Source: Brachycybe producta
Taxonomy: Eukaryota; Arthropoda; Diplopoda; Playtdesmida; Andrognathidae
NCBI GenBank assembly: GCA_036925085.1
Contig: JAUPFP010000093.1
Location: 459,710-523,709, forward strand
Reading direction: 5' to 3'
Length of the DNA stretch: 64,000 nucleotides
This document shows, one piece after another, positions 24,002 through 46,481 of this stretch. The notes beneath the pieces are model-generated. The model was not told the DNA's origin. It saw only the letters and a program-made list of their open reading frames with translations, and did not search any database. How positions within the stretch are numbered: the first letter of the stretch is position 1; every line of letters starts with the position of its first letter. Both the position numbers and the translations under genes were made by a program.

Positions 24002-27000
24002 TCAATTGAAGCCCAGTTTAGCCAGGGCCATCTTCTTTCTCAGTTGTAGAATCTCGCCGTAAACTTCATGTACTGTGAAAAGAAAGAAAAAAATAGGGTA
24101 GAAATTAAGAAGAAAAAAAGGGGGCGTGTCTCATAACAAAGGGGGAGTGACTTCGAGGTGAACCAGAGGGCGTGTACCCCATAAAAGGGGGTGGAGCTTA
24201 AGGTACACCCGAAAAAGGGGAAGTTGGTAAGAGAACGCGCAATATATACGTGGCACATAAAAAGCGATCGAAATACCAATACAAATGTGGATTACACAAA
24301 ATGGGAGTGGCTTAGTTGCCAGTGAGCATTGTTGGCCAAAAATCGAAATTACTTTAAGCCTTTTGTCGCTAACCACTTTTGGTTGTTGAGTTCGACTTCA
24401 TTTTGCAGTCAAAGTTGACCACTAAAAAGTGGCTCGAAAAGGGGGGGGGAGGGTCTTAAGTTGACCCGTGTGTAATACAGAAAAAAAAGGGAACTGAGCT
24501 AGTCGAAAGTGGGCGTGGTTTAGGGTATGGGGTGTGGTTTAGTGTGGGACCAGTTGGACAATATAGGAAGGAAGTGTCTTAGTTGGCAATGGGTGTTGGT
24601 CTATGAGATTTATGACAAAGGGATGTTGCATAACATTGGCCATTTATTATTAGTGGGCGTGGTCGCGTGCAATGGAGGGGGCGTGGCTTGACGTAGGCCA
24701 TTAGTATGAAGTGGTTTAAAGAAGGTATAGTTTGTGGCATACAGAGTAAAGGAAATGGTGTGTGGGGGCGTTGCTATAGTGAAAAAGGGGCGGAGTCTGG
24801 ATGGAAGGGCGGGGTCGATATAAAGGGGGCGTGGTCTTACTACTGTTCTTGACGAGTCCTTGTTGAATATAACGTAAATAAGATAGAAAATCGCAAGTGG
24901 CTGCAATCTGTTGAATAAAATAAGAGAGAAAAAAATGATTTTGGACATCGCTTCTCGATTGATAGTAACTTAACTGACCACTGTCCACTCTTACCCTATT
25001 TCGACACAGTTGCGAAATGTAATACCATTGTTCTGAATCTCCGAGTTTCATTCTGTATTTGCAAATACGAGGTGTTTCCAACAAGGAGCAACGTCTTTCG
25101 AATAACACGAGGAAGAAGAAGAAAAAAAAAGACACTTGACCATTTTCTTCTTGACCAAAATGGACATTGTCCATCGACTCACAAAATCCTTACTTTGGAA
25201 ATGGATTTTTGCCGCTGACCGTTTCGATCACGATTGAGTTGTCTTCAATACTTTTCTGAACGTTGACTGAAAGCTGTTTTGAATGAAAAACGAGCAAATA
25301 AAATGACCAATAGGAAGTGACCAATGGGAAGTGACCGAATGTGTGTCCATACTTCCTTGTTGCTGAAATTGAGGCACGGAAGAATGTCCTCTAGATAAAC
25401 ACGGTCCAGAAACGGATGAGTTTTATCCAAGTTCGGACTTTTTCTCCACGATACGAATTCGTGATGATAAAGTGGATCCACCTGGCGGACAAGAAAGACA
25501 GCATAATTTACATATTATGTAAATTAAAAAGGAAAACAAAATCGAGAATCTGTGTTTCAGAAACAACATTAAAATTTTTGAAATGTTTTTTTATGAAACT
25601 TAAGAGTAAATGGACCTTAAGGTCCCTCTGCCATAGGCCAACAGGCTGCTTGGGGAGTATTTTTTGTAATTCTAAATGAACCACTTAAGAACTTGAAGAG
25701 TAAATGAACCACTTAACAAGAAATTGAAAGAGCTTTAGAAACTAGAAGAGTAAATGGACCACTTAACAAGAAATTGAAAGAGCTTTAGAAACTAGAAGAG
25801 TAAATGGACTACTTAAAAAGAAACTGAAAGTTTTTAGAAACTAGAAGAGTAAATGAATCACTTAAAAAGAAACTGAAAGAGTTTTTAGAAACTAGAAGAG
25901 TAAATGGACCACTTAACAAGAAATTGAAAGAGCTTTAGAAACTAGAAGAGTAAATGGACCACTTAACAAGAAACTGAAAGAGTTTTTAGAAACTAGAAGA
26001 GTAAATGGACCACTTAACAAGAAACTGAAAGTTTTTAGAAACTAGAAGAGTAAATGGACCACTTAACAAGAAATTGAAAGAGCTTTAGAAACTAGAAGAG
26101 TAAATGGACCACTTAACAAGAAACTGAAAGAGTTTTTAGAAACTAGAAGAGTAAATGAATCACTTAAAAAGAAACTGAAAGTTTTTAGAAACTAGAAGAG
26201 TAAATGAATCACTTAAAAAGAAATTGAAAGAGTTTTTAGAAACTAGAAGAGTAAATGGACCACTTAACAAGAAATTGAAAGGGTTTTAGAAACTAGAAAA
26301 GTAAATAAATCAGGATTTTCCACGTTCAGATTTCATCAAAATAAACTTTTTCTGGTTTTCTTCTTCTGGAAATTCTCGAAATGTTTTGAGATGAAAAAAA
26401 ATTTGAATCCTAAGATTCAAAGCCCGTATTCGAAAACGTTGCTTAAAATAAAGTTAAGCTTTAACAAACGCAATACGAAACTATAACCAGGCTATGGAGA
26501 GTTTTTAAGTTTAACTTTGGCTTAAGTAATGTTTTAGAATAATGGCCCGTAAGTTTTTCCGTTGGAGTTTTACTTCGTATTCGTCTCTGAGAAATGGTTC
26601 CGTAGTTTGAAATTGCATTTGAGGAAGATTCGGATTTGGTTCCTTAACCGGTGATCCTGGTGGAGTCGTATCTCTACCGTATTTTAGATTATTGTGACTC
26701 GGTGATCGTTTGTGACCGCGAAACAGATTCATTCCATTGTTCATATTTCCACTCCCTCCTCCTCCACCGAATCCGTTCTCTTTCGGTCTCTGTTCGGCCG
26801 CTTTTAGTTGCGGATGAAGATGTCGATTCGGCATACTCGGAGTTGACGTAATGACCAAGGTTTTTAGAGCCTGAACTTCAGCCTGAAGAACTTCGATCTA
26901 TGGAAGGAATTTAGATCGATGGATTCACTCTGGATTCAAACAAACAAAAAATAACCTTCATGTTGGCTTCCGTTAGAGATTTCTCGGCTCCGTCTCTTTT

Positions 27001-28994
27001 CACTTTGGCTTCACGGACCATTTTATGAGCTTCCTAGAAAAAAACAAGAGAAATAATTTACGGAATGCCTCGGAGGGGGGGGGCCCTCTCGAACTCTTTG
27101 ATTATTTCTGTCCTTCAGATGCAAAATGAAGAGAAACTTGAATGTGTTTTAGAAACTAGAAGGGATATTTTCATGTTCGATATCTTTCAAAATAAACTTT
27201 TTATGTGATTTTTTAAAAAGTTTATTTTAAAAGATATCAACATGAAAATAACCTCTTTGAGTGATTGAGCTTTTATACGCTTCTAGTTTCTAAAACACTT
27301 TCTAGTTTCTCTCTTCTTGAAAGACAGGACAGGAATAATCAGGAGTTTGAAAATCATGTTGTTCGTAAAAACCATCTTAACCTGAAAGAGGCTAGCGGTC
27401 AGATCTTCTAGTTCGGCTCCGACTTCATCTCGTAGACAACGAAGTCTTCCGACTTCTTCGTCTTTCTGTTTTAACTCCTGTAAAATAAAAAAAAAATAAA
27501 AAAAAGGGGTTGAGGTTTTTTTTTCCCGAAAAAGGAAGTGTTGAATCCCCTGGAAAACAAAAAAAAATCTCGATTCTCGAACCTCGTGCGCTTTCTTAAG
27601 CTCTTCTTGAAGTCTTGCGAACGGATACGCCGCTTCAGTTTTTAGTTCGCAAGTTACGTTCGCAGCGCTGTTACTGTTGAATTCGTGAACATCTTCTTTT
27701 GGAAACTGTCTGAAAAAAGGAAGACACCCCACCCCCCAAAAAAAATATTATTGATTATCGATTCTGATTTACAGTGAAAATCGGATAACACGAAATATAT
27801 TTTCGGTCGGGGTGTTCTTTAGAAAAGCATAAAATTTCTTTTAACACCAAAATTCAATTAACACAAAGAAATATTTTTCATCTTTCTGTCCATTTCGTTT
27901 TAAATAGTTTCCACTGTAAATACAGTGAAAAACCGTTTAACAAGAAAAAATCGGATAAGACGAAATATATTTTCAGTTCGGTTCATTAGAAAAGCATGAA
28001 GAAGAGAAAAACAATTTCTTAGAACACGAAAACGGATAACAGAAAATATCTTTTCGGGTCTGGTCCTTTTAAAATAGTTGTAAGCTTTTCTTTTAACACG
28101 AAAAAATATTCCTGATCGGATCAGGAATATTTTTTCGTGTTAAAAGAAATGTTTACAACTATTTTAAAAGGATCAGGCTGATCCTTTTCATTTTGTCTTA
28201 AACCGTTTAACACAAAAACGGATAACACGAAATGTTATCAGTTCAAGTTCTTTGGAATAGCATAAAGATTTCTTTTAACACGAAAAAATATTCAGGGTCC
28301 CATTTTAGTTGGGTTTTAAAATTCATTTTTAACACAAAAAATATTCTGGTCTTTCATTTCGTGTTAAAACGTTTCGACTTTATACAGTTAAAACCCGTTT
28401 AACACGAAAACGGATAACACAAAATATGGAATTTCGTAGAATATAGCATTTTTTTAACACGAAATTCGTTTAACACGAATAAATATCTGTCCCTTTCATA
28501 TTTTCGTGTTATATTTTCATCGAGAACGGTTAAGTTGACCTATTGTGTTGACAACCACCAGATGTCGCTGGTCCATTCAGTTGCAAAACAGCTTCGGGGC
28601 TTCCAGGCGTGCTCGCTTTCGAAGACCGTTCGTGACCGTTGTCCGAGTTACAATTAGGTACGAGATTCGTTTCTTTCGTGGGGTTTCGATCGTCCTGATG
28701 AGAAGTTCCATTTACGGTGGCCCATTTGGTCTCTTCGGACTTTCCATTATCTGTCGATACATTACGTTGAATTGCAGATGGACAGTCCAGAGTAGGAGGA
28801 GTAGGAGGAGAAGAAGATGGTGAACTGGACACTTGGACATTGCAATCTTCACTGCCCACTGGATCTTCTCTTTGGTGTCCATTAAAATTGGTTGTTGGCG
28901 ATATTTCTTCTTCCGATTCCTTTTGATGATGATGATGATGTTGATGTTGGTTGTTGGAAGTGCCGTCATGGTCAGTTGTGGTCATCACTTCCAT
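24002..28994 (-). CDS. RAB3IP: Rabin8/GRAB-type guanine nucleotide exchange factor for Rab8/Rab3 (Sec2 domain), complete
   Basis: Ten exons give 502 aa with consistent phases: 28994-28540, 27709-27583, 27477-27382, 27033-26956, 26897-26574, 25481-25353, 25255-25194, 25094-24995, 24907-24841 and 24072-24002. Residues 1-150 are disordered (His-, Ser- and Pro-rich). About 175-265 is a Sec2 coiled coil with the hallmark [16 protein letters not shown], the GDP-releasing surface of Rabin8, GRAB and yeast Sec2p. About 360-502 is the conserved family C-terminus ([41 protein letters not shown], then [10 protein letters not shown] at the end). In animals the family loads GTP on Rab8 or Rab3 for ciliogenesis and exocytosis. 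The ATG lies 5 nt inside an exon behind a good acceptor (ttcttcctag), so a 5' UTR exon is expected upstream. The acceptor of exon 7 has an alternative 11 nt upstream that would break the frame. Vertebrates have two paralogues, RAB3IP and RAB3IL1; this looks like the single ancestral type. Confidence 0.93.
25675..26300. repeat. Tandem array of about 56 bp built on the family C end, in a Rabin8-type intron
   Basis: About eleven units of ttagaaactagaagagtaaa followed by tggaccacttaacaagaaa or tgaatcacttaaaaagaaac and a gaaag spacer. Two unit types alternate irregularly. It lies between exons 25353-25481 and 26574-26897. Confidence 0.88.
26423..26550. mobile_element. Family F short hairpin element overlapping a Rabin8-type splice region
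   Basis: gttgcttaaaataaagttaa faces ttaactttggcttaagtaat, bounded by ggcccgtattcgaaaacg-type ends. It ends about 24 bp from the exon boundary at 26574. A second copy is at 40540-40670. Confidence 0.65.
27147..27299. mobile_element. Family C foldback element in a Rabin8-type intron
   Basis: gttttagaaactagaaggga...gatatctttcaaaataaact faces aaagtttattttaaaagata...cgcttctagtttctaaaaca with a very short loop. Confidence 0.78.
27769..28505. repeat. Family G (TTTAACACGAAA) repeat cluster in the first Rabin8-type intron
   Basis: Words cgtttaacacgaaaacgg and ataacacgaaatat alternate with their complements, including the palindrome gaaaaaatattcctgatcgg / ccgatcaggaatattttttc near 28100. The same family lies in two Synaptotagmin introns. 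Confidence 0.75.
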
Positions 28995-29198
28995 GTCCAC
29001 TAGGAAGAATAGTAGGTTACACTTTGAAGTGTGTTTGGTCACTGTTTTAAAAAAGAAAGATAAAAAGAGAAATGTCAAACGTTTGACAGGATTTCAAATG
29101 ATTTTGATCATTTGGTCATTTCCGTTTTAAAAAAATGTGTTTTCTAGTCTAGTTGGTTCTTCTAGTCTCTTTGGTTCTTCCGAAATAACTCAAATTTA

Positions 29199-30708: not shown

Positions 30709-31312
30709 GCCTTTTTTGGTTTTTTGGGCCTTTTTTGGTTTTGTGGGTCTTTTTTTGGTTTTGTGGGCCTTTTTTGGTTTTGTGGGTCTTTTTTTGGTTT
30801 TGTGGGCCTTTTTTTGGTTTTGTGGGCCTTTTTTTGGTTTTGTGGGCCTTTTTTTGGTTTTGTGGGCCTTTTTTTGGTTTTGTGGGCCTTTTTTTGGTTT
30901 TGTGGGCCTTTTTTTGGTTTTGTGGGTCTTTTTTGGTTTTGTGGGTCTTTTTTGGTTTTGTGGGTCTTTTTTAGTTTTGTGGGCCTTTTTTAGTTTTGTG
31001 GGCCTTTTTTAGTTTTGTGGGCCTTTTTTAGTTTTGTGGGCCTTTTTTAGTTTTGTGGGCCTTTTTTAGTTTTGTGGGCCTTTTTTAGTTGTGTGGGCCT
31101 TTTTTTGGTTTTGTGGGTCTTTTTTTGGTTTTGTGGGTCTTTTTTTGGTTTTGTGGGTCTTTTTTTGGTTTTGTGGGTCTTTTTTTGGTTTTGTGGGTCT
31201 TTTTTTGGTTTTGTGGGTCTTTTTTTGGTTTTGTGGGTCTTTTTTTGGTTTTGTGGGCCTTTTTTTGGTTTTGTGGGAATTTTTTTGATTTGTGGGCCTC
31301 TTTGGTTTTGTG
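30709..31312. repeat. 20-bp satellite GGGCCTTTTTTTGGTTTTGT
   Basis: About 30 units with small changes (gggtc, ttttag). It opens frames on both strands, and those frames are artefacts. Confidence 0.95.
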
Positions 31313-31876
31313 GGTTTTACGGTCTTGATGAGGTTGGATTGGCTTTTTTTTTTGCTCTGAACTGGGCCTCTGTATTTTTTTTAAAAAAAAATACAAAATG
31401 ACATCTGTCTCTTAACATATAATATGTTAATTAGATGTCTAGCCTCTTAATTTGATTGGAATTAACGTAATTTGTAGTTATTCGAAAAAAATAAAAATCA
31501 ATAAATCAATTTGCAACTGAAAAACAAGATTCGAATTAAACAAAAAACGGGCCTTTACGAGCTTCCGTATTAATCTTTAATCGTTTGCTCAAATCAGAGA
31601 AATGTTAATTATTTTCTGAGAAAAAGTAACAGCTGATCATTTAATCATGTCAGGATATTAAAAATGAGCGACAAATAGAGGTTAAAATTAAATATGTGAT
31701 CGATGATCTTTTATATTGAAATATGTGAAATATTTGAGAGAAAAAAAAAGAGAATCTAATAAATAATGCAATTTAAAAAGAAGCAAAAAAAAAAAACCCG
31801 ATAGGATTACATTGAGAGAGAAATCCGATACACAAACATATTGGAATTTATAAAAGATAAAGACTCCGATGACGTC

Positions 31877-31981
31877 GTTGCCATGGTAACCAAGGTTGTG
31901 GTTTTGTTTCCATAGCAACCTCGGCTCGTGTCTTCCCCCCCCCCTCTCATTCATTCATTCAGGCTAAGTTGTCATAGCAAC
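31877..31981. promoter_or_regulatory. Triple RFX X-box cluster, candidate distal promoter of the Rabin8-type gene
   Basis: Three motifs fit the X-box consensus with an AT spacer: GTTGCCATGGTAAC at 31877-31890, GTTTCCATAGCAAC at 31906-31919 and GTTGTCATAGCAAC at 31968-31981. The first is almost a perfect palindrome and overlaps a GACGTC. They lie about 2.9 kb 5' of the Rabin8-type ATG, whose exon starts behind a splice acceptor, so a 5' UTR exon near here is plausible. RFX binding and the link to this gene are inferred, not shown. Confidence 0.6.
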
Positions 31982-32061
31982 CGCCGTAATATGATCGAGT
32001 TATCACGCACGTGATCCTAATCTCAAAGAAATTGTTGTTTCTTCTCTCACCAGTAAAAAAA

Positions 32062-32764: not shown

Positions 32765-35577
32765 ATTTTTTCTAAGGAAAAAAAAATATGAACATGAGAA
32801 AATCCTCTTGAAATGATTCATTTACTCTTCTAGTTTCTAAAACACTTTTAATTTTTTCTATAAAAATATGAACATGAGAAAATCCTCTTGAAATGATTCA
32901 TTTACTCTTCTAGTTTCTAAAACACTTAATTTTTTCTATAAAAATATGAACATGAGAAAATCCTCTTGAAATGATTCATTTACTCTTCTAGTTTCTAAAA
33001 CACTTAATTTTTTCTATAAAAATATGAACATGAGAAAATCCTCTTGAAATGATTCATTTACTCTTCTAGTTTCTAAAACACTTAATTTTTTCTATAAAAA
33101 TATGAACATGAGAAAATCCTCTTGAAATGATTCATTTACTCTTCTAGTTTCTAAAACACTTAATTTTTTCTATAAAAATATGAATATGAGAAAATCCTCT
33201 TGAAATGATTCATTTACTCTTCTAGTTTCTAAAACACTTAATTTTTTCTATAAAAATATGAACATGAGAAAATCCTCTTGAAATGATTCATTTACTCTTC
33301 TAGTTTCTAAAACACTTAATTTTTTCTATAAAAATATGAACATGAGAAAATCCTCTTGAAATGATTCATTTACTCTTCTAGTTTCTAAAACACTTAATTT
33401 TTTCTATAAAAATATGAACATGAGAAAATCCTCTTGAAATGATTCATTTACTCTTCTAGTTTCTAAAACACTTAATTTTTTCTATAAAAATATGAACATG
33501 AGAAAATCCTCTTGAAATGATTCATTTACTCTTCTAGTTTCTAAAACACTTAATTTTTTCTATAAAAATATGAACATGAGAAAATCCTCTTGAAATGATT
33601 CATTTACTCTTCTAGTTTCTAAAACACTTAATTTTTTCTATAAAAATATGAACATGAGAAAATCCTCTTGAAATGATTCATTTACTCTTCTAGTTTCTAA
33701 AACACTTAATTTTTTCTATAAAAATATGAACATGAGAAAATCCTCTTGAAATGATTCATTTACTCTTCTAGTTTCTAAAACACTTAATTTTTTCTATAAA
33801 AATATGAACATGAGAAAATCCTCTTGAAATGATTCATTTACTCTTCTAGTTTCTAAAACACTTAATTTTTTCTATAAAAATATGAACATGAGAAAATCCT
33901 CTTGAAATGATTCATTTACTCTTCTAGTTTCTAAAACACTTAATTTTTTCTATAAAAATATGAACATGAGAAAATCCTCTTGAAATGATTCATTTACTCT
34001 TCTAGTTTCTAAAACACTTAATTTTTTCTATAAAAATATGAACATGAGAAAATCCTCTTGAAATGATTCATTTACTCTTCTAGTTTCTAAAACACTTAAT
34101 TTTTTCTATAAAAATATGAACATGAGAAAATCCTCTTGAAATGATTCATTTACTCTTCTAGTTTCTAAAACACTTAATTTTTTCTATAAAAATATGAACA
34201 TGAGAAAATCCTCTTGAAATGATTCATTTACTCTTCTAGTTTCTAAAACACTTAATTTTTTCTATAAAAATATGAACATGAGAAAATCCTCTTGAAATGA
34301 TTCATTTACTCTTCTAGTTTCTAAAACACTTAATTTTTTCTATAAAAATATGAACATGAGAAAATCCTCTTGAAATGATTCATTTACTCTTCTAGTTTCT
34401 AAAACACTTAATTTTTTCTATAAAAATATGAACATGAGAAAATCCTCTTGAAATGATTCATTTACTCTTCTAGTTTCTAAAACACTTAATTTTTTCTATA
34501 AAAATATGAACATGAGAAAATCCTCTTGAAATGATTCATTTACTCTTCTAGTTTCTAAAACACTTAATTTTTTCTATAAAAATATGAACATGAGAAAATC
34601 CTCTTGAAATGATTCATTTACTCTTCTAGTTTCTAAAACACTTAATTTTTTCTATAAAAATATGAACATGAGAAAATCCTCTTGAAATGATTCATTTACT
34701 CTTCTAGTTTCTAAAACACTTAATTTTTTCTATAAAAATATGAACATGAGAAAATCCTCTTGAAATGATTCATTTACTCTTCTAGTTTCTAAAACACTTA
34801 ATTTTTTCTATAAAAATATGAACATGAGAAAATCCTCTTGAAATGATTCATTTACTCTTCTAGTTTCTAAAACACTTAATTTTTTCTATAAAAATATGAA
34901 CATGAGAAAATCCTCTTGAAATGATTCATTTACTCTTCTAGTTTCTAAAACACTTAATTTTTTCTATAAAAATATGAACATGAGAAAATCCTCTTGAAAT
35001 GATTCATTTACTCTTCTAGTTTCTAAAACACTTAATTTTTTCTATAAAAATATGAACATGAGAAAATCCTCTTGAAATGATTCATTTACTCTTCTAGTTT
35101 CTAAAACACTTAATTTTTTCTATAAAAATATGAACATGAGAAAATCCTCTTGAAATGATTCATTTACTCTTCTAGTTTCTAAAACACTTAATTTTTTCTA
35201 TAAAAATATGAACATGAGAAAATCCTCTTGAAATGATTCATTTACTCTTCTAGTTTCTAAAACACTTAATTTTTTCTATAAAAATATGAACATGAGAAAA
35301 TCCTCTTGAAATGATTCATTTACTCTTCTAGTTTCTAAAACACTTAATTTTTTCTATAAAAATATGAACATGAGAAAATCCTCTTGAAATGATTCATTTA
35401 CTCTTCTAGTTTCTAAAACACTTAATTTTTTCTATAAAAATATGAACATGAGAAAATCCTCTTGAAATGATTCATTTACTCTTCTAGTTTCTAAAACACT
35501 TAATTTGTTCTATAAAAATATGAACATGAGAAAATCCTGTTGAAATGATTCTTTTTATTCTAGTTTCTAAAATACTT
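32765..35577. repeat. 78-bp satellite, about 36 nearly identical units
   Basis: The unit runs cacttaattttttctataaa, aatatgaacatgagaaaatc, ctcttgaaatgattcattta, ctcttctagtttctaaaa (78 bp; for example starts at 33001 and 33079). Interior units are identical by eye except for isolated changes such as tgaatatgag near 33182; divergence appears only in the first one or two and last two units. The right part of the unit is the family C end in reverse orientation. Confidence 0.97.
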
Positions 35578-41930: not shown

Positions 41931-43324
41931 TCACGGGTCTTTAAAATCCTCTTGGGAATCGGTATTGTACTCGACGGTTACCAATTGTAACGGAAGGGGG
42001 CAAACCCTTACGGAATCTTCGTCTTCGTTTCCTCTTTCTTCGGTAACTTTTTCTTTGGTTGCTTTTTTTTCGGTTACTTTTTCTTCGGTTGCTTTTTTTT
42101 CGGTTACTTTTTCTTCGGTTGCTTTTTCCTCGGTTGCTTTTTCTTGTACCTCGACTTTCACTTCGGTTTCGCTAACTTCCACGTCGTTTTTCTTAACGGG
42201 CTTCTTCTTCTTTTTCTTCTTCTTTTTTCTCGACTTGGCTGTCGTCAAAATCGTCGGTACCGCTTGCCGAACGAGTCTGCATCTTCCTCGGGGTATTCGT
42301 ACTTCTTCACCATTTATGATGTGGATGTAGTCTTTCTCGATCGAGTTCTTCTGAATGAAAAGATAGAAGAAAATTTTCATAAATCTTCTAGGGGCGATAT
42401 GAGGCTTTTTCAGGACCTTTTAAAACACTTGTTTGATTTTTGGCCGATTTTCTCGGAAAAATACTAATTGTCTTCTAATGATTTGCTTTTTTTTCCCGAT
42501 TTCTTCGATTTTGTTGAGTTTAAACACTTCTTCATAAAAGGTTTTTATTTTCTGTCTTCTCGGGGAAATATTGAGGACTTTTCAGGATATTTAAACATTT
42601 TTCGATTTTGGCCGGTTTTTCCCCGGAAAAATAGCAGTCGTAATGATTTACTTTTTTCCGAGTTTTTCAATTTTTTTTTAATTTTTAAACACTTCATACA
42701 AGTTTTCTTCTTCTCTGTCTTCTCGAGGGAATGTTGAGCCCTTTTCCGGATATTTTAACATTTTTCGATTTTGGCTGTTTTTTTCTCTCTCGGAAAAATA
42801 GCAAAGTCTTTTCTTTTTTCCGCATTATCTATTCCGAGTTTTAAATTTTGTTGAATTTTTCTTAAAGCCTTCGCGATCGGGTCTTTTGGGACCAGTTGAA
42901 CCCTTGTGTGAGGCCCTTTCAGAGCATTTAAACGCTATTCGATTTAGGACCCACTAGCCTTCAAACTAAAGGCTACAAAGTTGTTACATATTGCGGAATA
43001 AAATGCGGAAAATTCCGCATTTTATTATTTTTCTTCTTAAAGAGGGCAGGCACCTAATTGAAAAGAATTCCAATAATCATGTGTATTAAATACATGTCTC
43101 TGAAAATGTTGGCCCATTAAAGGCGCGCGCCACTTAATAGTTCTCACCTCAAAATGCTTTTCACAAATGAAATCTGTAATCTTGAGAGCCCTTGTTGACT
43201 TAGGAAGGAATTGCTTCCACTTTTTACGAAGTTCTTTATCTTTTGGTGCCTGAAATAATTTGATTTTTTTGTTGGTGTTTGAGTTACTTTTACAGCCCGG
43301 AACAAAACAAGAATGATGGGGCAT
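41931..43324 (-). pseudogene. Truncated THAP-domain paralogue (decaying tandem copy)
   Basis: Exons 43324-43148 and 42350-41931 join in phase 0 and would give 198 aa. The THAP finger is still complete: CFVPGC, WKQFL, CEKHF, and AVPTIL at its end. The linker has changed into a Lys run plus imperfect 10-residue repeats such as KATEEKVTEK, encoded by 30-bp repeats. Where the intact paralogue continues with its C-terminal domain, this copy reads into TGA at 41933-41931. From there to about 41650 the paralogous sequence survives only in broken frames: the counterparts of VNGN, IKNNPQ, RIL-SE and GRHCK can still be picked out. About 50 residues before them (around HEWLSSYPLPDGW) are deleted. It could still make a short THAP-only protein, perhaps competing for the same DNA sites; decay is the simpler reading. 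Confidence 0.72.
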
Positions 43325-43854
43325 TTTTTTTAACAAAACTAAATTGAAATTTTCCGATTTTCCGCACGTTTCTTGTTCAAAATTTCTAAAAAAATATTTT
43401 GTGAACGACGGCTTAACGTGGAACCCGCCATCTAGTGGTGTCAATATGAAGCTCGCATAGATTGAAATAGAGGTAGTTCAACCTAACTTACAGGAGTGTG
43501 GCCTATAGAGGGCGCAAGCTGTATTTAGAGCTTCAGTTACTATACGATTAGAGGGCGTACGAGATTCACTTTCATTGTCGCCCCCCTTTAAAATAAGCTT
43601 GCCATGCCGTACGAGATTCACCCTCCTGTGTCGTTTTCCTTCTAGCTTTAAAAAGTAGACGATTCTTCGCTCACTTTTAGCGCTTTTTTTTTTGCCTAGC
43701 CTTTAGAAATTTATCTTGGTTTAACTATGAATAACAGCTCGGCACCTATGGTACATTCTGTGTTATAACTGAGTGTGACCAATAGATGGCGCCACTTCGA
43801 ATTAGAGCTAAATTCATTATCACTTCACATTTCATAGAAAGTGGTCATATGAAC

Positions 43855-44065
43855 TAGCATTAGCTGGTTAGTTTTTCATAGCGCATGCGCATTGCCGTCC
43901 ATTGTTTTATATAGGAAAGTGATGGCAAGTGAACGTCTCATCGGCAGTTTCCATTGGTGATCAATAGATGGCGCTGCTAACGCAAATCTGCAATACTTTC
44001 CTATATAAAACGATGGACGGAAATGCGCATGCGCTATGAAAAACTCTAATCAGCTAATGCTAGTG
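43855..44065. repeat. Inverted repeat with GCGCATGCGC in each arm, between the THAP copies
   Basis: ctagcattagctggttagtt...catagcgcatgcgcattgcc...tttatataggaaagt faces actttcctatataaa...gaaatgcgcatgcgctatg...cagctaatgctag. The arms are about 70 bp around about 70 bp of spacer. GCGCATGCGC resembles an NRF1 site. Confidence 0.75.
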
Positions 44066-44563
44066 TCATTTGAAGCGTGTGCTGCACACTGGAAATGAAA
44101 AGACATTCCATTCCTTCCCTTGGAATGTACTGCACTCAACAGTTCTAGTCTCGCTCTTCCGGTTACATGTTCGTGATCACGAAATGCCAACTATGAACCC
44201 GACATTGAGTCAGGGTTATGCCCGGTGGTTAATCCCCCGCCCCCGGGGGATTAAACACCTTCATAGCCAGAGGAGTACAGGATGCCCGGTGCACGTTGCC
44301 ATGCTCTGCTCCAGACAGGCTTTGGAAGCACTCGCGAGGTCTCGGCTTTTCGAAAATCAAATGCCGCAAACGAGCGAGAACCCTCTACGGCAAACATTTT
44401 TTTGAGGATTAACAGAAATTTGTCAACATGGCCCAGTTTTATGACGAAAAAAAAATCATTTTAATCGACAAAAAAATTCAACTACGGAAACAGAAAATAA
44501 TTTATACAAAAGATCGAACTTCCAACGAGAGGTGATTACGAGTGAGAATGTTTCCCATTTGAG

Positions 44564-46124
44564 TTATAACTCAAATTGTCTTTCCCAATATTTACACTTG
44601 AAGCAAACAGGCATAACATTGGATACGTATCCTTTGCAATGTCTTCCATACAGTCTGTTACCTACGATCCTTACTTCACGCAAACAATCGGCATCTAACT
44701 TGTAGCTGCATTCGGAATCGAGAATTCGATGCAATCCTATTCCTTTACATAACGATGTTACGGAAACTGCCTTAAACAACAAAGGAATTGTCACTTGAGG
44801 ATTATTCTTGATGTAGTTTTCGTGAAAGAGAAAACGGCAACTGTCCGTTACATCGTTTCCGTTAACGTATATTACGGGTCTGTAAAATCCCTTTGAAAAC
44901 TTGACGTGTCGCATCGGACTGGACGGATTTCCGTCGCAGTACGAAAAAAAAGTATGGCTGTCCGATACGTTGCGACTCCAACCGTCCGGAAGCGGATAAG
45001 ACGATAGCCATTCGTGTAAATCGGTACTGTAGTCGATGGGTACCACTTCGATCGCGAGGGAACTCACTTTCCGTTTTTTACCTCGCTTTCGGTTTCTTTC
45101 GGAATCATCTATTCCGTCGTTTCCTTCTTCGTCGTCTTGTTCTTCTTCGACATCTTCGTCGTTTTCATCTTCATCTTCATCGGATTCTTCTATTTCTTCT
45201 TTTACTTGTACCTCGATTTTCAATTTGTTTTCCTGAACTTTCTTTTGCTTTACAAACTTTGCATTGGAGAAAATCGTCGGTAGCGCAGTCGGAAGAAGTT
45301 TGCATTTTCCTCGTGGAATCCGCACCTCTTGTCCTTTGATTATATGGATGTAGTCTCTTTCGATCATGTCTTTCTGAATGAAAATATACAGAAAACGTAA
45401 TGAATTTCTTGTAAAAATCTAATTTAGTGACTTAAAGAGGCCTCGTGAGAGACTCACTTTTTGATTTTTTTTTTCCGGAAAAAAAGCTATGTCTTTGAAT
45501 TTTACATATTTATTTTCCGAGTTTTCAATTTTGTTGAATTGAAAAACTTTTTAAAGCTTTTTTTTCCGCGCTTCTCTGGCCAGTTGAGCCCTCCTGAAGT
45601 CTTTACGAAGCGTTTAAACACTTTACTATTTTTAGCCGTTTTTTTTTGTCCGGAAAAAAAAGTAATGTGTTGACTTTTTGCATTTTCCCGAGTTTTTTTA
45701 TTAAAAATGTCGTTAAATTTAAAGGCAGTTATATATGCTGCGCCATAAAGGCGCAATATGCGGAGAAAAAGCTTAGTAAAATGCGGAATTCCGCATTTTA
45801 TACTAACCCCCCCCCCCCCCCCCCATACTGACATTCTTGTTTCCTAAAAACATGCTTGGCGTTTGGTGGTCCTTCAAATTTTCGGTTGTAGGCGCGCGTG
45901 CGTGCGCGCCTAAACGCGCCACTTATGGTTCTCACCTCAAAATGTAGTTCGCAAACGTAATCGGTTCTCTTTAAGGTCCTGTCTGCCCTAGAAATGAGTT
46001 TGTTCCACTCTTGACGAAGGTCTTCATCTTTTGGTGCCTGAAATAATTTGACGTTTTTGTTTCTTTCTTCGAATAATTTGTTGTAACCACTTTTACAACC
46101 TGGAACGAAACAATGATGGGGCAT
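44564..46124 (-). CDS. THAP-domain protein with acidic linker and uncharacterised C-terminal domain (intact tandem copy)
   Basis: Two exons, 46124-45936 and 45373-44564, join in phase 0 (332 aa). Exon 1 starts at ATG and holds most of a THAP zinc finger: CFVPGC supplies the first two ligands, WNKLI the conserved Trp, and CELHF the last two ligands. Exon 2 completes it with ALPTIF, the AVPTIF box that closes THAP domains, at about residue 98. An acidic Glu/Asp run (about 115-165) and a basic RKRGKKRK stretch (possible nuclear signal) follow. The last 165 residues (from SSLAIEVVPIDYS to the end) form a Cys- and Trp-containing region I do not recognise, ending with CFKCKYWERQFEL. THAP domains bind DNA specifically and occur in transcription regulators and P-element-related transposases. 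No transposase catalytic core is visible, so a host regulator is more likely. A truncated paralogue lies 3' of it on the same strand. Confidence 0.8.
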
Positions 46125-46481
46125 TTTTCTTTTTTTTTTGTAGAAAAACAATGACAAAATGAATTTTCCACGCGTTTTGAACGCGGAAATACGTTGAAAA
46201 CGTAAGTTTGTTAATTTGTCATGTTTCAATGTTGAACGCGCCACCTAGTGATGTTAATCGGAAACTTAACATGGATAGAAAATTAACATTGATACATAGA
46301 GGTAGCTCAACTAACAATAAGAGTTCTTCTTCTCCGCTATGAAGAATTATATGCCGTAACTGAGTAGAACCAATAGATGGCATCACCTCTAATTAGAGCT
46401 AAACCCACTATATGATGCTCAAAGGATAAGTTTCAGGTGATCCTTGCAAGACATAATTATCTTCATTTCCGGTGTGAGAGA

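What the first reader, a model, noticed from the sequence alone, without database searches (positions are those of the whole stretch)
31877..31981. Three RFX X-boxes in 105 bp upstream of a Rab8-GEF gene
GTTGCCATGGTAAC, GTTTCCATAGCAAC and GTTGTCATAGCAAC all fit the X-box consensus with the two-base AT spacer, and random AT-rich DNA should rarely give three so close. The nearest gene on that side is the Rabin8-type GEF, read away from the cluster. Its first coding exon begins behind an acceptor 5 nt before the ATG, so its promoter should lie further upstream. Rabin8 acts with Rab8 in ciliogenesis and RFX factors are ciliary regulators, so a direct RFX-Rabin8 wiring is plausible.
Basis: partly seen in the sequence, partly recalled or inferred. 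Interest (0 to 1): 0.75.

Follow-up and report, generated by a model that had tools for sequence, protein, structure and literature searches.

The report
RFX-site cluster upstream of Rabin8
In what looks like a millipede genome, three near-perfect binding sites for RFX, the family of proteins that switch on cilium genes, sit together about 2.9 kb upstream of the gene for Rabin8, a cilium and vesicle-traffic protein; such tight clusters are very rare in this genome, so a direct link is plausible, but nothing yet shows that it works.

Summary
Three 14-bp X-boxes lie at 31877-31890, 31906-31919 and 31968-31981, the only exact GTTNYCATRGYAAC places in the window. The 295-Mb genome holds three same-orientation pairs of such boxes with a gap of 1-31 bp, against none for the backwards control; the window's is one. 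The stretch is single copy, although 37 of 66 other X-box loci sampled lie in repeats. On the minus strand, 2.88 kb away, is an intact 10-exon Rabin8; its nearest named relative is from a millipede. The genome has at least five RFX-domain loci. Best reading: an RFX-bound promoter or promoter-proximal module of Rabin8. Transcription start, conservation and RFX binding could not be tested, and sequence assigns no 5'-UTR exon. Of eight other unique X-box loci looked at, five had a nameable ORF within 2 kb, none a cilium gene that I know, so a neuronal or general RFX role is as open as a ciliary one. In passing: three repeat groups carry X-boxes, one together with CRE-like sites.

The parts
31877..31890 (+). 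X-box 1, GTTGCCATGGTAAC (near-palindromic; exact match on both strands)
31906..31919 (+). X-box 2, GTTTCCATAGCAAC
31968..31981 (+). X-box 3, GTTGTCATAGCAAC
31870..31876 (+). TGACGTC, a CRE-like site that abuts X-box 1 (CRE is a recalled label). TGACGT is not clearly enriched near unique X-boxes: 5 of 30 loci, window included, about 3.75 sites expected
31847..31852 (-). TATAAA on the minus strand, about 25 bp beyond X-box 1 towards Rabin8; TATAAAAG overlaps it on the plus strand (31849-31856), so orientation is ambiguous, and the motif is common
32008..32013 (.). CACGTG (E-box-like) just outside the cluster
28540..28994 (-). Rabin8 coding exon 1, ATG at 28994; acceptor CCTAG ends at 29000
24002..28994 (-). 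Rabin8 (RAB3IP/GRAB-type Rab GEF), 10 coding exons, 508 aa, intact frame

Best explanation
The three X-boxes form a homotypic RFX binding module that acts as the promoter or promoter-proximal enhancer of the Rabin8 gene on the minus strand. RFX dimers bind the three sites, perhaps with a CREB/ATF-type factor at the abutting TGACGTC, and drive a transcript that starts between the cluster and the gene; its 5' leader is then spliced to the acceptor at 29000, just before the start codon. Shown: the sites, their rarity, their single-copy nature, the gene, and RFX DNA-binding domains in the genome. Inferred: RFX binding, direction, the leader exon, the CRE partner, and expression in ciliated sensory neurons.
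For: Three exact sites in 105 bp; no exact site in 5000 local shuffles. One of three tight same-orientation strict pairs in 295 Mb, control 0. Of 66 other X-box loci fetched, none has a second strict box within 110 bp and 2 have a relaxed one. The stretch is single copy, and its longest match to 68 other fetched loci is 18 nt, in effect the box itself. Rabin8 is the only convincing gene found that is read away from the cluster nearby. The acceptor 5 nt before the ATG calls for an exon further upstream. At least five RFX-domain loci. The cluster is a local GC rise (0.39-0.43 in windows starting 31751-31901, mean 0.34). X-boxes upstream of coding sequence, one or more, are the known sign of RFX targets in worm and fly (PMC2873420 and PMC2375033, passages seen).
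Against: The distance of 2.88 kb to the ATG is long compared with 100-250 bp in the worm, though flies were screened to 3 kb with the tightest consensus. No strong donor or core promoter marks a start site. The GC rise is modest: 13 to 30% of 250-bp windows of the 64 kb are as GC-rich or more. In flies an X-box upstream of an ATG was by itself not predictive of RFX dependence. In this genome X-boxes are common in repeats and near non-ciliary genes. The other two tight pairs (C7, C18) could not be tied to any gene in 4 kb each. Conservation untested.
Confidence: 0.58

Rival explanations
1. The cluster is an RFX element for something else: an unannotated plus-strand or non-coding transcript, or a distal element of another gene in the region such as synaptotagmin-1.
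For: A plus-strand TATAAAAG lies at 31849, upstream of the boxes. The palindromic box has no direction. A synaptotagmin-1-like gene (C2 exons at 51.9-52.3 and 59.3-59.6 kb, minus strand) is a neuronal gene within 30 kb.
Against: No convincing plus-strand coding exon between 32 and 51 kb (a crude codon-bias predictor and a few ORFs only). The synaptotagmin has its 3' side towards the cluster.
Confidence: 0.2
2. RFX does regulate Rabin8 here, but as a general or neuronal (synaptic, Rab3-type) regulator rather than as part of a ciliary programme. This is compatible with the best explanation's mechanism and differs only in its purpose.
For: Named ORFs within 2 kb of other unique X-boxes are ChaC, PHD-finger, dsRBD, LON-like and SH3. 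Many arthropod orthologues are annotated as GEF for Rab-3A. At least five RFX loci leave room for non-ciliary factors.
Against: Eight of 29 other unique loci were looked at and five gave a name, so a ciliary share cannot be estimated, and whether these ORFs are the targets of their X-boxes is unknown. Rabin8 works at the cilium in vertebrates (passages in PMC4652968 and PMC11545745).
Confidence: 0.35
3. The boxes are a relic of mobile DNA or otherwise without function.
For: 37 of 66 sampled X-box loci belong to three repeat groups, and the region between the cluster and Rabin8 holds a 20-bp tandem array.
Against: The stretch is single copy, the flanks of the boxes do not match the other fetched loci, and three different box sequences stand side by side.
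Confidence: 0.12

Closest known systems
X-box promoters of RFX/DAF-19 target genes (C. elegans, Drosophila, vertebrates)
   Same: Same 14-bp imperfect inverted repeat with a 2-bp spacer, one or more copies upstream of the coding sequence of a gene tied to cilia
   Different: Three copies close together; 2.88 kb from the ATG rather than 100-250 bp as in the worm; binding and RFX dependence not shown here
Fly RFX target genes with conserved X-boxes (PMC2375033, passages seen)
   Same: The boxes fit consensus versions used in that screen
   Different: That screen relied on conservation between two species; no second species could be compared here
MHC class II X1-X2 module (RFX site next to a CRE; recalled)
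   Same: An RFX site with a CRE-like site directly beside it
   Different: No Y box looked for; the pairing is not clearly recurrent at unique X-boxes in this genome

Membership tests
RFX-target X-box promoter | Match to the X-box consensus RYYNYY-N1-3-RRNRAC | tested here: met
   (2-bp spacer): all three boxes fit, on both strands
RFX-target X-box promoter | More than chance in this genome | tested here: met
   loose matches with mismatches are not enriched in the window
RFX-target X-box promoter | RFX factors present in the genome | tested here: met
   9 PF02257 matches over the cut-off, on C93, C27, C45, C21, C1 and (weak, with a stop) C37; 0 of 14 control genomes
RFX-target X-box promoter | Lies at the transcription start of the gene | tested here: inconclusive
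   no assignable leader exon or core promoter
RFX-target X-box promoter | Conserved position in related species | not testable with these tools
   no animal DNA collections available; only proteins of relatives
RFX-target X-box promoter | RFX binding or RFX-dependent expression | not testable with these tools
   needs ChIP, EMSA or a reporter
Rabin8 / RAB3IP | Sec2p coiled-coil GEF domain and Rabin8-type C-terminal domain in one protein | tested here: met
   PF06428 4.3e-07 and PF25555 2.6e-66, both over the cut-off; best relatives 68-74% identical over 75-82% of the query
MHC-II-like X1-X2 module | Recurrent pairing of the RFX site with a CRE | tested here: inconclusive
   within about 60 bp of the box, TGACGT at 5 of 30 unique loci (about 3.75 sites expected) and TGACGC at 3 other unique loci (about 0.7 expected); TGACGT at 12 of 14 loci of one repeat group and 2 of 12 of another

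The most novel reading that the evidence does not exclude
The Rab8-activating GEF itself is a direct RFX target in a myriapod, through an unusually dense three-site module. The factor that starts ciliary-membrane delivery would then be under the same switch as the IFT machinery, a wiring that I did not find reported in the listings and passages I saw (searches; most listed papers were not opened).
Probability: 0.35. Interest if true: 0.55.

Novelty: new member of a known kind. Interest (0 to 1): 0.45.

Why it matters
If real, it adds an upstream membrane-traffic step (Rabin8 to Rab8) to the transcriptional programme that RFX is known to run for cilia, in an arthropod group for which none of the ten papers listed (of 364) in one search held RFX, X-box and a myriapod word together (listing only). 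It also gives a compact natural element with which to ask how multiple X-boxes act together.

Tried and rejected
Repeat origin of the cluster: considered because many X-boxes in this genome are in repeats; not supported. A CRE/X-box composite as a general rule: not shown (TGACGT near 5 of 30 unique loci, about 3.75 expected; TGACGC near 3 of 30, about 0.7 expected). A leader exon ending at 31811: not beyond chance. A plus-strand gene starting at 32-37 kb: two plus-strand ORFs there (36163 and 36749) have no Pfam match, others were not tested, and the sequence shows no exon structure by eye. Sigma-70 promoter scan: not informative in an animal. Rfam: no match. NCBIfam with four window ORFs: no match. 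PDB with a suspected rapsyn exon: no match.

The sampled locus L010 (C1:1353279) also has three X-box-like sites in about 70 bp (two pass the relaxed rule, the third is by eye). Nearby is a gene with only five relatives found, none with a telling name (multi-TM by eye); two ORFs on the other side have no Pfam match. It neither supports nor refutes the ciliary reading. The other two tight pairs (C7:1765046, C18:1146216) gave no identifiable gene: codon-bias scan and ORF lists in 4 kb each, and ten chosen ORFs without a Pfam match over cut-off.

Not answered: the genome searches for pairs with gaps of 32-62 bp and for CRE-X-box composites, and PF06428 (not repeated). A survey of X-boxes at IFT/BBS genes was planned and not done.

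Full report
What is there. They are the only exact matches to GTTNYCATRGYAAC in the window. In 5000 dinucleotide-preserving shuffles of the local 261 bases no exact match appeared on the plus strand, against three observed. With mismatches allowed the window is not enriched (9 matches against a shuffle mean of 24.3; 11 against 8.4, reached by 26 of 100 shuffles), so the case rests on the exact and clustered sites. Box 1 is the best, near-palindromic site; boxes 2 and 3 need looser consensus versions.

How rare it is. The window lies in a 295.3-Mb genome of 442 contigs, at C93:459710-523709. The motif occurs 755 times forward and 691 times in reverse, palindromes counted in both, against 23 and 27 for the pattern read backwards: about thirty times the control, in good part because of repeats (below). 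Tight pairs in the same orientation (gap 1-31 bp) are rare: three in the genome, two forward and one reverse, none for the control, and one of the three is the window's. Independent placement of the counts would give about 0.1 such pairs (my arithmetic). Pairs in opposite orientation were not sought. The search for gaps of 32-62 bp, needed for box 3, did not complete.

Repeats. Of the 82 distinct places that one search listed (a capped list) I fetched 67 in 66 loci. With the window's own locus, 67 loci were compared: 37 fall, by single linkage, into three repeat groups in which the X-box lies inside the shared stretch (11, 12 and 14 loci), and 30 have unique cores, the window among them. Among the 66 others no locus has a second strict box within 110 bp; two have a relaxed one, L010 and L028, the latter in a repeat group. 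The window's stretch 31800-32060 is single copy (with that tool's caveat about simple and very common words), and its longest match to 68 other fetched loci is 18 nt, in effect the box itself. The cluster is thus not a copy of these repeats.

The gene. On the minus strand, ten coding exons from 28994 to 24002 give an intact protein of 508 aa with a Sec2p domain (4.3e-07) and the Rabin8-like C-terminal domain (2.6e-66). The three best relatives are 74, 70 and 72% identical over 76, 82 and 75% of the query, from sources without names; the fourth, 68% over 75%, is from the millipede Chamberlinius hualienensis (2100 proteins at E 0.001 or better, best 120 listed, only the 7992 candidates sharing most words scored). 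The host is therefore probably a myriapod, most likely a millipede; this is inference from one gene. Of seven relatives aligned, four also begin ME, but the N-terminus is poorly conserved. The acceptor TAG ends 5 nt before the ATG, so at least one exon should lie upstream. X-box 1 is 2883 bp from the ATG.

Other genes nearby. C2-domain exons of a synaptotagmin lie on the minus strand at 59.3-59.6 and 51.9-52.3 kb; the first of them is closest to synaptotagmin-1 in the PDB, and an N-terminal exon at about 61.0-61.4 kb is assigned by eye (no NCBIfam match). Two THAP-domain ORFs lie at 43.0-46.2 kb, minus strand, and a piece of reverse transcriptase at 63.0-63.2 kb. A gene at about 4.7-10.2 kb on the plus strand looks like rapsyn; that name is from the look of the translation and not confirmed (weak RING matches below cut-off, no match). 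Between the cluster and 51 kb the 25 best segments of a crude codon-bias scan include only two on the plus strand, opposite the THAP region, and two plus-strand ORFs near 36 kb have no Pfam match. Rabin8 is thus the natural target, without proof.

Core promoter and leader exon. Around the cluster GC rises to 0.39-0.43 from a window mean of 0.34, which 13 to 30% of the 250-bp windows equal or exceed. TGACGTC abuts box 1; TATAAA lies about 25 bp beyond on the Rabin8 side, and TATAAAAG overlaps it on the other strand; CACGTG is at 32008. Within about 60 bp of unique X-boxes TGACGT is found at 5 of 30 loci (about 3.75 sites expected), TGACGC at 3 (0.7), CACGTG at 4 (1.3), TATAAA at 8 (9.6) and CCAAT at 12 (10.1), so none of these makes a strong rule. 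The only donor candidate over 3.5 bits near the cluster, at 31811, scores 3.92; about 4 GT sites per kb of one strand reach that, while Rabin8's own nine donors range from 1.9 to 8.9, so weaker donors could also serve (the donor frequencies were recalled, approximate values). Sequence alone neither finds nor excludes a leader exon.

Is it ciliary? The genome has RFX DNA-binding domains on C93, C27, C45, C21 and C1, plus a weak match with a stop on C37. Rabin8's ciliary role in vertebrates is well described (passages in PMC4652968 and PMC11545745). For ten ORFs from eight unique X-box loci, six gave any Pfam row at E 0.1: ChaC, PHD-finger and dsRBD over the curated cut-off, LON-like and SH3 just below it, and one only weak chance-level rows; four gave none. 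None of the five is a cilium gene that I know, and whether they are the targets of their X-boxes is unknown. The two other tight pairs could not be tied to a gene. In flies the presence of an X-box upstream of an ATG was not by itself predictive (PMC2375033, passages). A neuronal or general RFX role remains open.

Literature. In what I saw, no paper ties Rabin8 or RAB3IP to an X-box. Searches: Rabin8+RFX+X-box (2 papers), RAB3IP+RFX+X-box (1), at least two of RAB3IP, RFX3 and RFX2 (121, of which 15 listed and one of these holds RAB3IP), Rabin8+RFX (12). Passages were read in PMC5145144, PMC4869170, PMC4652968, PMC11545745, PMC2375033 and PMC2873420; of the 12 papers eight were seen in the listing only. 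A search for RFX or X-box with myriapod words listed 10 of 364 papers; two of the ten hold RFX (PMC9269926 and PMC8918179, on Fox genes), none X-box (listing only). ChIP target tables in supplements were not open to me, so this is weak evidence of absence.

and one search were added; the count of nameable genes, the CRE test and the literature statement were corrected.

Verdict. A real, rare, single-copy three-site RFX cluster upstream of a real Rabin8 gene; a new member of a known kind, with function unproven.

Noticed in passing
L021, L024, L025, L027, L028, L032, L039, L040, L048, L054, L055, L056, L063, L065 (cores near locus position 2001): A repeat group whose members carry an X-box, with TGACGT within about 60 bp in 12 of 14 and, by eye in several, a CATAAAA stretch after it. 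Some X-boxes recur on one strand about 10.3 kb apart (C1:6154724 and 6164996; 18527167 and 18537424), as in two LTRs. A mobile element that may answer to RFX and CREB-type factors; observed only.
   Followed up: partly
L005, L006, L029, L036, L038, L042, L043, L045, L050, L051, L052: A second repeat group with GTTTCCATGGCAAC and TATAAA within about 60 bp in 11 of 11; such boxes occur as inverted pairs 1.4-2.8 kb apart (for example C1:598776 and 601056), as in terminal inverted repeats of a DNA transposon.
   Followed up: partly
L017, L030, L031, L033, L034, L035, L041, L044, L046, L049, L053, L066: A third, looser repeat group, mostly GTTGCCATAGCAAC in a common context; its nature was not determined.
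   Followed up: no
L068:9900 / L069:60-145 (C1:1353279): Another dense X-box-like cluster: three sites in about 70 bp, the only one besides the window among the 30 unique loci compared.
   Followed up: partly
L070 (C7:1765046) and L071 (C18:1146216): The only other tight same-orientation pairs of exact X-boxes in the genome; no gene could be named within 4 kb.
   Followed up: partly
window 32782-35577 and 30712-31315: A 78-bp tandem repeat, 35.8 copies at 99% matches, just beyond the cluster, and a 20-bp array (30.9 copies) between the cluster and Rabin8.
   Followed up: no
window 43040-46244, minus strand: Two THAP-domain ORFs; whether genes or transposon remnants was not determined.
   Followed up: no
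G000:C93:283031-283219: The best RFX DNA-binding-domain match of the genome lies on the same contig as the window, about 0.18 Mb from its start.
   Followed up: no
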